DNA from: Acuticoccus sp. I52.16.1
Lineage (GTDB): Bacteria; Pseudomonadota; Alphaproteobacteria; Rhizobiales; Amorphaceae
Direction of reading: 5' to 3'
Length of the DNA: 64,000 bases
Assembly: GCF_022865125.1 (NCBI RefSeq)
Contig: NZ_CP094828.1
Coordinates: 2,907,219-2,971,218, forward strand
Shown here: piece after piece, positions 56,189 through 59,028 of the stretch
Position numbering within the stretch: the first letter of the stretch is position 1
Layout of the letters: the number at the start of each line of letters is the position of its first letter
The notes under the pieces: model-generated
What the model saw: only the letters and a program-made list of their open reading frames with translations
Told to the model about the DNA's origin: nothing
Databases searched by the model: none
Made by a program: the position numbers and the translations under genes

Positions 56189-56580
56189 CCACGGGACTCT
56201 ACGAGCCGACACCGGTCCTGCGCTTTTACGACGAGGCGGCGACGCGCGCCTTCTACGTCGACTGGCTGGGCTTCGAGGTGATGTTCGAGCACCGCCACGA
56301 CGACGCCGCGCCGCTCTACATGGGCCTGTCGCGCGGCACCGGCACGGTGATCCACCTCTCGCAGCACCACGGCGACGCGACGCCGGGGGCGCAGGTCCGC
56401 TTCCGCGCCGAGGACGTGCGCGCGCTGCAGGCCGAGCTCGCCGGCAAGCCCTACCGCTTCGCCCGCCCCGGCCCGCCGGAGATGATGCCGTGGGGCTACC
56501 TGCAGCTCTCGATCACCGACCCGGCCGGCAACCGCCTGATCTTCTGGACCAATCCGGACTATCTGCCGGACCCGGCATAG
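56185..56580 (+). CDS. Glyoxalase/bleomycin-resistance family protein
   Basis: A 131-residue vicinal-oxygen-chelate protein. The two beta-alpha-beta modules are visible: VLRFYDEAATRAFYVDWLGF at the start and YLQLSITDPAGNRLIFW at the end. Its coupling to GST through an ATGA overlap suggests a role with glutathione adducts. The family includes lyases, dioxygenases and binding proteins for antibiotics, so the reaction is open. Confidence 0.88.
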   Translation: MTTGLYEPTPVLRFYDEAATRAFYVDWLGFEVMFEHRHDDAAPLYMGLSRGTGTVIHLSQHHGDATPGAQVRFRAEDVRALQAELAGKPYRFARPGPPEMMPWGYLQLSITDPAGNRLIFWTNPDYLPDPA

Positions 56581-56609
56581 TCCCAACACAAGACACTCTA
56601 GGGAACCCC

Positions 56610-57338
56610 ATGCGTCTTTCCGGAAAACGCTGCCTGTGCACGGCTTCGGCCCAGGGCATCGGCCGCGCGACGGTCGAAGCCTTCGCCCGAGAGGGCGCGA
56701 CCGTGTTCGCCACCGACCGCAACGCCGACGGCCTGAAAGGCCTGCCCGACGGCGTCGAGACCTTCGCGCTCGACGTGACCGACCGCGCCCAGTTGGAAGA
56801 GGCGATCGACCGGGTGAAGCCGGACGTTCTGTTCAACTGCGCCGGTGTCGTCCACGCCGGCACCATCACCGACGCCACCGACGACGACTTCGACTTCGCC
56901 TTCGAGCTGAACGTGAAGTCGATCTTCCGGGCGATGCGCGCGGCGATCCCCGGCATGGTCGAGCGCGGCGGCGGGTCGATCGTCAACATCGCCTCGGCGG
57001 CGTCGTCCATCATCGGCGTGCCCAACCGCTGCGTCTACGGCGCGTCCAAGGCGGGGATCATCGGCCTCACCAAGTCCGTCGCGGTCGACTACGTGACGAA
57101 GGGCGTGCGCGTGAACGCGATCTGCCCCGGTACGGTGGATTCGCCCTCGCTGCACGAGCGGCTGCGCGCCACGGGCGACTACGAGGGGGCGATGACGTCG
57201 TTCATCGCCCGCCAGCCGATGGGCCGCATCGCCCGCGCCGAGGAGATCGCCGCCATGGCCCTCTACCTCGCGTCGGACGAATCGGCCTTCGTCACGGGTC
57301 AGGCAATGATCATCGACGGCGGCTGGACCGTCTCCTGA
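56610..57338 (+). CDS. Short-chain dehydrogenase/reductase C
   Basis: A 242-residue classical SDR. TASAQGIGRA at 10-19 replaces the usual TGG start of the cofactor loop, NCAGVVHAG is near 78, and Ser131, Tyr145 and Lys149 (YGASK) form the catalytic set. ATDRN at the end of strand 2 favours NAD. AGGGA precedes the ATG by six bases. Sequence style resembles 3-hydroxybutyrate dehydrogenase type 2 and sugar-alcohol SDRs, including the short loop DGGWTVS at the C-terminus. Confidence 0.88.
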   Translation: MRLSGKRCLCTASAQGIGRATVEAFAREGATVFATDRNADGLKGLPDGVETFALDVTDRAQLEEAIDRVKPDVLFNCAGVVHAGTITDATDDDFDFAFELNVKSIFRAMRAAIPGMVERGGGSIVNIASAASSIIGVPNRCVYGASKAGIIGLTKSVAVDYVTKGVRVNAICPGTVDSPSLHERLRATGDYEGAMTSFIARQPMGRIARAEEIAAMALYLASDESAFVTGQAMIIDGGWTVS

Positions 57339-57388
57339 CGGCAACGCGCGCGTGGGTCCGGCGCGGGGCCCGCCCAGGCGACACGGAG

Positions 57389-57484
57389 CGCCACGCCGTT
57401 TACGCGGCGGCGATGCGGATCGCCACGCCGTTTACGCGGCGGCGATGCGGATCGCCACGCTGTTTATGCGGCGGCGATGCGGAT
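57389..57484. repeat. Three tandem 32-bp repeats at the end of the EAL gene
   Basis: Units at 57389-57420, 57421-57452 and 57453-57484. The first two are identical; the third differs at two positions. Read on the minus strand, each unit encodes IRIAAA and then TAA, so each copy carries the stop codon of the EAL gene. The stop sits in the loop of a small hairpin (CGCCG-CGTAAA-CGGCG). Since 32 is not a multiple of three, successive copies are in different frames. Confidence 0.95.
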
Positions 57485-58798
57485 CGCCGCCGTGGCGCCC
57501 ATCCTGCGTGAGGCGCGGGCTGCCTGCGCGGCGATCTTGGCGTGCGCCAGCGCCGGCACCGCGGCCGCCAGCGGCTCGCCCAGGTGCACCGGCGCGGTCG
57601 GCCGGCCGAGGAAGTAGCCCTGCGCCAGGTCGACCCCCAGCTCGATCAGCGCGCGGAGTTCGTCCGCCGTCTCCGCGCCTTCGCCGAGGAACAGCGTGTC
57701 CGTCTCCTGCGCGAAGAGGCCGATGGCCTGGATCATCGCCCGGCGCGAGGGGCAGTTGTGCACGTTGCGCACGATCGAGGTGTCGGCCTTGATGATGTCC
57801 GGTCGCAGGCGGATGATGTGCTTGAAGCTTGAGTAGCCGCCGCCCGCGTCGTCGACCGCGATGCGCAGCCCGTCGCGCCGCAGCGGCAACAGCGCGCGTT
57901 CGAGCGGCTCGTACTGCGCCACGCTGGAATGCTCGGTGATCTCGATGACGAGGCGGTTCAGCGGCACGCCGTGCAGCGCGGCCGCGAACTCGGGGGCGGT
58001 CACCGTCGCCGGCGAGCTGTTGACGAAGAGCGACGTGTCGGGCGGCAGATGGGAGAGGGCGTCGATCGCGGCCCGGATCGCGGTGATCTCGAGGTCGCTG
58101 CCCAGGCCCACCTCGTCGGCCTCGCGGAACCACACGTCCGGCGTGCGGCGCGGCTCGATGGCGAAGCGGCTCAGCGCCTCCGCGCCGAACGGCGTCGCCG
58201 CCTCGAGGTCCCAGATCGGCTGAAGGACGATGTCGAGCCCCGCGCGGTCGGCCAGCAGGGGGGCGAGGCGGTCGCGCTTGCGCTGCGCCTCGCGCTCGGT
58301 CGCGAGCTCGCCCTCGATGGCGACCGCGGCGATCTGCGCGAACGCCCGCATCATGTTGATGTCACGCCGGTTCAGCGTCGGATCCGGCGACGTCGCGAAG
58401 CCGCAGAACATCCCGAACAACGCCCCGTCGGAGAGATAGATCGGCACGGTGAGGTTGGCGCGGATGCCGAGCGCGTCGGTGGCGGGAAGCGCGCACGCCA
58501 ACGGGTAGAGGCCCGTGTCGTTGATCAGCTCGGGCAGCTTCCCGTCACGCACCAGGCCGCAATAGGTCTGCGAGGCCGGCGTCCTCTTGCCCGGCTCGCC
58601 GAAGATCCCGTCCCGCCCCGGCGCGTCGACGTCGTAGACGGTCATCACGTCGCCGTCGAGGCGGGAGACGAAGGCGACGTCGAGGCCGAGGTGCGTGCGC
58701 ACGACGCGAAGCAGATGCTGGACAACGTTCGTCGCCGCCGAGAAGACCGACGCCGAGACCAGATCTCGTACGAGCTCGCTATCGGCACATCGCGGCAT
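57464..58798 (-). CDS. GAF-EAL cyclic-di-GMP phosphodiesterase
   Basis: A 444-residue cytoplasmic signalling protein. A GAF sensor covers about 15-165 (LGLDVAFVSRLDGD, ANLTVPIYLSDG). The EAL domain spans about 190-420 and keeps the key residues: EALSRF, VNSSP, VIEITEH, VDDAGGGYSSF with both Asp, IIKADTSI with the Lys and Asp, LGEGAETADEL and GVDLAQGYFLGRP. It should therefore be able to cleave c-di-GMP. GGAGAGG precedes the ATG at 58796-58798. The last seven codons and stop belong to a tandem repeat. Confidence 0.92.
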   Translation of the reverse strand: MPRCADSELVRDLVSASVFSAATNVVQHLLRVVRTHLGLDVAFVSRLDGDVMTVYDVDAPGRDGIFGEPGKRTPASQTYCGLVRDGKLPELINDTGLYPLACALPATDALGIRANLTVPIYLSDGALFGMFCGFATSPDPTLNRRDINMMRAFAQIAAVAIEGELATEREAQRKRDRLAPLLADRAGLDIVLQPIWDLEAATPFGAEALSRFAIEPRRTPDVWFREADEVGLGSDLEITAIRAAIDALSHLPPDTSLFVNSSPATVTAPEFAAALHGVPLNRLVIEITEHSSVAQYEPLERALLPLRRDGLRIAVDDAGGGYSSFKHIIRLRPDIIKADTSIVRNVHNCPSRRAMIQAIGLFAQETDTLFLGEGAETADELRALIELGVDLAQGYFLGRPTAPVHLGEPLAAAVPALAHAKIAAQAARASRRMGATAAIRIAAA

Positions 58799-59028
58799 GT
58801 CGCCTCTCCTTCCGACCCTCTGCATTCCACCAACTAGGCCGGCCGATCGGACGCGGTATCGTCATGGGCGCGATAGGAGATTTGGCGGAATCGACGGGGT
58901 GCGGCGGCGGGTGGGCGGCGGCGCCGGCGTGCAGCGCAATCTCTGTCATTTTTCGCGATCCCACGTTAAGACCGCAGGCAAGGCGTGCCGCTTCGAGCGC
59001 GCCGTTCGCTTCGGAGGAGGACGCGTCC

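What the first reader, a model, noticed from the sequence alone, without database searches (positions are those of the whole stretch)
57389..57484. Tandem 32-bp repeats that each carry the stop codon of a c-di-GMP phosphodiesterase
Three copies abut the 3' end of the GAF-EAL gene, and each encodes IRIAAA-stop in its own frame. Because the unit is not a multiple of three, loss or gain of copies leaves the protein end intact but changes the 3' untranslated region, and a frameshift upstream could be rescued by the next copy. Each unit also forms a small stop-codon hairpin. This might be a phase-variable 3' element or a recent slippage product.
Basis: seen in the sequence. Interest (0 to 1): 0.5.

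Follow-up and report, generated by a model that had tools for sequence, protein, structure and literature searches.

The report
Small tandem duplication across a stop codon
A 32-base piece of DNA covering the end of a signalling-enzyme gene has been copied head to tail about three times in one bacterial genome; it looks like an ordinary DNA-copying slip of a kind already described in other bacteria, and no switching function is shown.

Summary
At 57389-57484 (minus strand) three abutting 32-bp copies each carry ATC CGC ATC GCC GCC GCR TAA; two are identical and the gene-proximal one differs at two positions. The array runs on imperfectly to 57377-57488. The three TAA codons fall in three frames. 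TRF score is 189; the best of 100 shuffled windows is 96.

At up to 3 mismatches the unit occurs nowhere else in its own genome and in 0 of 396 other genomes sampled from the order. The matching locus of a congener has the same convergent gene pair but a 28-nt spacer instead of 125 nt, and no array. This is best read as a private tandem duplication that happened to span a stop codon.

Phase variation, frameshift rescue and a stop-codon hairpin are not supported: the repeated residues lie beyond the EAL domain and are not shared by the homolog tails I read, and the gene-strand fold is no better than tandem arrays of shuffled units. Stop-codon-overlapping tandem repeats are already described (10 of 88 VNTRs in Yersinia pestis, PMC3689786). 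Copy number in reads or sister strains could not be tested.

The parts
57377..57488 (-). 32-bp tandem array, 3.5 copies, spanning the stop codon of the GAF-EAL gene
   Evidence: TRF period 32, 3.5 copies, 93% matches, score 189; lag-32 identity runs
57421..57452 (-). copy 2: TAA with first base at 57434, in another frame
57389..57420 (-). copy 3: TAA with first base at 57402, in the third frame; identical to copy 2
57377..57388 (-). degenerate edge of the array (the 32-bp unit 57377-57408 has 3 mismatches)
57464..58825 (-). GAF-EAL c-di-GMP phosphodiesterase-like gene, 453 aa as listed (start codon not verified)
   Evidence: ORF; Pfam EAL 7.2e-43 and GAF; PDB matches to BlrP1 and other EAL proteins
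56610..57338 (+). convergent short-chain dehydrogenase gene whose stop lies 125 nt from the EAL stop (start codon not verified)
   Evidence: Pfam adh_short_C2 1e-58 for the longer listed ORF 56490-57338; translation; spacer length

Best explanation
A locus-specific minisatellite made by tandem duplication (replication slippage or unequal recombination) of a 32-bp, GC-rich, palindrome-bearing segment that covers the last codons, the stop and the first downstream bases of a GAF-EAL gene, in the short spacer between two convergent genes. It persists because duplicating a segment that spans a stop codon leaves the protein unchanged, and with convergent neighbours no start codon or promoter is expected just downstream. 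No function is needed. Shown: the array, its uniqueness among the genomes searched, its absence from the syntenic congener, and the unchanged protein end. Inferred: the slippage mechanism, the order of events, that the congener's state is the older one, and neutrality.
For: At up to 3 mismatches the 32-mer occurs only in this array in its own 5.5-Mb genome and in 0 of 396 other genomes sampled from the order. Congener G002 has the same neighbours on a 20-kb stretch: 5 of 7 window proteins queried matched (SDR 88%, GST 79%, FAH 89%, DUF2254 71%, EAL 52% identity; PriA did not match, and the VOC query was cut out of frame by my script, so its miss says nothing). Its spacer is 28 nt without array, against 125 nt here. 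In TRF phase the middle unit equals the distal unit in one half and the proximal unit in the other half, as expected if a 32-bp segment inside an older, shorter array was duplicated again. Unrelated strong tandem arrays (period 20 or more, score above 100) that I do not read as RTX-like coding repeats occur at four loci (in L075, L079, L086, L092) of a 400-kb sample of the same genome, so such arrays are not rare there. Tails of the EAL homologs read differ.
Against: The plus-strand RNA of the array folds better than plain shuffles (z -4.44; 0 of 200 as good), and an idealised consensus array folds better than all but 1.75% of 400 tandem arrays of shuffled units, so a role as RNA 3'-end structure for the convergent dehydrogenase gene is not excluded; the real array, at -70.2 against a null of -59.6 with sd 8.0, stands out much less. 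One of 27 other homologs read (G077, L072) also has a stop-codon-spanning tandem array, of unrelated sequence. No reads or sister strains were available, so recency and assembly correctness are unproven.
Confidence: 0.85

Rival explanations
1. The array works as an RNA 3'-end element: its palindromes form hairpins between the convergent genes and protect or end the transcripts, mainly that of the plus-strand dehydrogenase, and copy number tunes this.
For: Plus-strand fold z -4.44 against plain shuffles; consensus array as good as or better than all but 1.75% of tandem arrays of shuffled units, single unit all but 1.8%; position between two convergent stops.
Against: The real plus-strand array is about 1.3 sd from the tandem-aware null (-70.2 against -59.6, sd 8.0) and the real minus-strand array sits on it (-59.4 against -59.0, sd 7.7). 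The minus strand is also weak against plain shuffles (z -1.85, 10 of 200 as good). No terminator-like site in 57200-57700 (the scan needs a T run, and hardly any is expected by chance). Unit energies: plus strand -15.2 (proximal), -16.6 (middle), -13.0 (distal), so both edge units are weaker than the middle one; minus strand -9.4, -13.6, -14.0, so the proximal unit is weaker and the distal one is not. The congener lacks the array.
Confidence: 0.1
2. A phase-variable or frameshift-rescue device: copy number changes alter c-di-GMP phosphodiesterase output, or the three-frame stops rescue shifted reading.
For: The TAA codons do fall in all three frames, each preceded by IRIAAA.
Against: Copy number leaves the protein unchanged. 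The repeated residues lie after the EAL match (residues 194-409 of 453) and are absent from the 52%-identical ortholog, so rescuing them restores nothing seen to be conserved. No variation could be examined.
Confidence: 0.03
3. Assembly artefact: the true genome has fewer or more copies.
For: Reads are not available; tandem repeats are a usual place of assembly error (general knowledge).
Against: The copies differ at two positions and the edge unit at three, and the whole array is 112 bp on a 5.13-Mb contig of a 6-contig assembly, short enough for reads of about 200 bases or more to span (inference; the read type is unknown).
Confidence: 0.03

Closest known systems
Stop-codon-overlapping VNTRs of Yersinia pestis (PMC3689786; passages read)
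   Same: Tandem repeats whose unit includes the stop codon of an ORF: 10 of 88 VNTRs. The text says their copy-number variation might have less effect on the coding of the ORFs, and the legend of its figure S1 that it would not change the coding.
   Different: Different organism and sequences; the five 3'-end motifs in the passage I saw are 8 to 41 bp. Polymorphism was measured there, here it could not be. That paper also reports low diversity at some of these loci and suggests selection.
MIRU-VNTR VNTR3239 between rnc and fpg1 of Mycobacterium tuberculosis (PMC2734929; abstract and passages read)
   Same: Lineage-restricted expansion of a spacer by tandem repeats: 279 to 358 bp in the M. tuberculosis complex against 54 bp or less in the other mycobacteria of its table.
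   Different: The array starts 40 bp after the rnc stop and ends at the fpg1 start codon, upstream of a gene whose expression it is linked to; here both neighbouring genes end at the array.
REP/BIME and other dispersed palindromic repeats (recalled, no call)
   Same: GC-rich imperfect palindromes at gene 3' ends.
   Different: Those are dispersed families; this unit occurs at one locus only.

Membership tests
Locus-specific minisatellite overlapping a stop codon | Head-to-tail copies of one unit above chance | tested here: met
   TRF score 189 against a maximum of 96 in 100 shuffled windows
Locus-specific minisatellite overlapping a stop codon | The unit contains the stop codon of a coding gene | tested here: met
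   TAA at 57466, 57434, 57402; coding gene supported by Pfam
Locus-specific minisatellite overlapping a stop codon | Unit restricted to the locus | tested here: met
   Only the three array copies in the own genome at up to 3 mismatches
VNTR | Copy number varies between strains of the species | not testable with these tools
   One genome per species is held; no read data
Phase-variable repeat | Copy-number change switches a reading frame | tested here: not met
   Every copy ends its frame with the same residues and stop, and the gene frame ends in the first copy
Phase-variable repeat | Copy-number change alters a promoter or expression | tested here: inconclusive
   No sigma-70-type site in 57200-57700, but almost none is expected by chance and other promoter types are not covered; expression not testable
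Dispersed palindromic repeat family (REP/BIME type) | Many copies at unrelated loci | tested here: not met
   No other copy in the own genome at up to 3 mismatches; 0 of 396 other genomes of the order
Intrinsic terminator | GC-rich stem followed by a T run | tested here: not met
   0 sites in 57200-57700

The most novel reading that the evidence does not exclude
Genes of this GAF-EAL subfamily tend to gain tandem repeats across their stop codon, so that the repeats are a recurrent, selected 3' element and not a chance duplication: the window gene (32-bp unit, stops in three frames) and the G077 homolog (unrelated 15-bp unit, TAG repeated in frame) have them independently.
Probability: 0.03. 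Interest if true: 0.5.

Novelty: new member of a known kind. Interest (0 to 1): 0.1.

Why it matters
It matters little. It is one more example of a tandem duplication tolerated at a stop codon, and could serve as a strain-typing marker if copy number varies. If the weak recurrence in G077 proved general, it would point to selection on 3' ends of these genes.

Tried and rejected
Dispersed repeat family: rejected, the 32-mer is unique at up to 3 mismatches. The IRIAA-coding half-pattern gave many more 3-mismatch hits in the own genome than its reversed control (52 against 7); I read this as codon bias of coding sequence (not tested), and the only exact hits are the array's own three. The stop-containing half gave 8 hits, 3 of them the array, against 5 for its control.

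Close relatives in genome contigs: 4 distant loci, at most 34% identity (records very near the window's own may be left out there). The IUPAC unit in viral contigs: 0.

Gene-family-linked stop repeats: tested by reading the 3' ends of homologs with E 1e-50 or better. One of 27 other homologs (G077, L072) has a stop-spanning array (19 read, 26 including those, one more). Among other coding-like ORFs: 0 of 318 in the own-genome sample and window besides the window gene, 0 of 14 in L093, and of 159 in other fetched loci only L072. For a Fisher test I took 465 other ORFs, subtracting 26 for the homologs without checking that all 26 passed the ORF filter. p is 0.055 without the window gene; the 0.003 with it is biased, because that gene was chosen for having the array. 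The second G007 homolog was not read. A first version with an exact 15-nt criterion found 0 of 288 ORFs and missed even the window gene, because substitutions flank its stop; I then loosened the criterion to 22 of 25 matches, so it was set after a look at the case. Searches in two further families added one homolog, without array.

Literature: searches were seen as listings; only PMC3689786 and PMC2734929 were opened, as passages. The search for tandem repeat + phosphodiesterase + c-di-GMP + stop codon + phase variation listed one review that I did not open.

A slip of mine: the VOC query was cut one base out of frame, so its lack of a match is uninformative.

Full report
OBSERVATION. On the minus strand the GAF-EAL gene ends at 57464 (TAA, first base 57466). 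From 57484 down to 57389 there are three abutting 32-bp units; 57389-57460 is perfectly periodic at lag 32, and the gene-proximal unit differs at 57461 and 57467. TRF reports 57377-57488, 3.5 copies, score 189; 100 shuffled windows reach at most 96. Each unit contains ATC CGC ATC GCC GCC GCR TAA, and since 32 is not a multiple of three, the three TAA codons stand in three different frames.

CONTEXT. The array lies in the spacer between two convergent genes: a short-chain dehydrogenase on the plus strand ending at 57338 and the GAF-EAL gene. The spacer is 125 nt. In congener G002 the neighbours are kept: 5 of 7 window proteins queried matched a 20-kb stretch (dehydrogenase 88%, GST 79%, FAH 89%, DUF2254 71%, EAL 52% identity; PriA did not match; the VOC query was cut out of frame and is uninformative). 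There the spacer is 28 nt, without array, and the EAL protein ends in a different tail. The EAL match ends at residue 409 of 453, and the tails of the homologs read are not alike. The best-scoring solved relative is BlrP1, 8.7e-17, followed by other EAL proteins; catalytic residues were not tested one by one.

UNIQUENESS. At up to 3 mismatches the unit is found three times in its own genome, all in the array, and in 0 of 396 other genomes sampled from the order. A DNA search with 181 bp around the array found only short weak matches (E 8.4e-4 or worse) in the 7 other genomes of the genus. It is not a dispersed repeat family.

HISTORY (inferred). In TRF phase the middle unit differs from the distal unit only in one half (3 positions) and from the proximal unit only in the other half (2 positions). 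That mosaic is what a further 32-bp duplication inside an older, shorter array would leave. The small palindromes of the unit (GGCGAT-GCGG-ATCGCC on the plus strand) may have helped slippage; that is general knowledge and was not tested.

STRUCTURE. Gene-strand RNA is unexceptional: z -1.85, 10 of 200 shuffles as good; the real array sits on the mean of tandem arrays of shuffled units (-59.4 against -59.0, sd 7.7), and 15% of these fold as well as the consensus array. The plus strand is better than plain shuffles (z -4.44, 0 of 200 as good). Against the tandem-aware null the consensus array is in the best 1.75% of 400 and a single unit in the best 1.8%, while the real array is about 1.3 sd out (-70.2 against -59.6, sd 8.0). 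I take most of the plain-shuffle z to reflect the repeat itself, which shuffling destroys (inference). Unit energies are -9.4, -13.6 and -14.0 on the minus strand and -15.2, -16.6 and -13.0 on the plus strand, from proximal to distal: the unit with the gene's own stop has the weakest gene-strand fold, and on the plus strand both edge units are weaker than the middle one; on the minus strand the distal unit is not weakened. No terminator-like site was found.

BACKGROUND. In a 400-kb sample of the same genome, tandem arrays with score above 100 and period 20 or more occur at six loci; two of these (L076, L090) look like RTX-type coding repeats (recalled pattern), and four (L075, L079, L086, L092) do not. 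By a simple ORF rule only L079 is clear of coding-like ORFs; L086 lies within one, L092 within or between overlapping ones, and L075 overlaps the 5' end of one. None of 318 other coding-like ORFs in this sample and the window has a repeat across its stop. Among 27 other homologs of the EAL gene read at their 3' end, one (G077, L072 2715-2765) has a 15-bp array in which the TAG recurs in frame; the homolog of the congeneric G112 (L071) has none. With one event this is inconclusive (Fisher p 0.055 on an approximate denominator).

LITERATURE. The kind is known: in Yersinia pestis 10 of 88 VNTRs overlap stop codons; the text says copy-number variation there might have less effect on coding, and a figure legend that it would not change the coding (PMC3689786, passages). 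The authors also report low diversity at some of these loci and suggest selection, a caution against assuming strict neutrality. In M. tuberculosis a spacer expanded by lineage-specific tandem repeats is linked to expression of the downstream gene (PMC2734929, abstract and passages); here both genes end at the array, so that route is not available.

VERDICT. A real, private, small tandem duplication across a stop codon, best explained by slippage and tolerance. The 'stop codon in every copy' follows automatically from where the duplication lies. Interest is low.

Noticed in passing
L072:2715-2765 (G077): Homolog of the EAL gene ends in PTL-TAG followed by a 15-bp tandem array (3.4 copies) that repeats the TAG in the same frame; absent from the congeneric homolog L071.
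   Followed up: partly
window 57464-58825 and L093: The EAL gene diverges much faster (52% identity) than four syntenic neighbours (71-89%) between two congeners, and strong homologs (E 1e-50 or better) are patchy: 20 of 397 genomes of the order, own genome included.
   Followed up: partly
L079:283-447: A 20-bp unit repeated about 8.4 times outside any coding-like ORF in the same genome.
   Followed up: no
L075:4476-4542: A 26-bp palindrome-bearing tandem array near the 5' end of a minus-strand ORF.
   Followed up: no
L092:13378-13540: A GC-rich array with nested 15, 30 and 45-bp periods, about 10.9 copies of the 15-bp unit.
   Followed up: no
L069:4048-4156: A 36-bp unit repeated 3.0 times (score 190) about 1.4 kb from an EAL homolog.
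   Followed up: no
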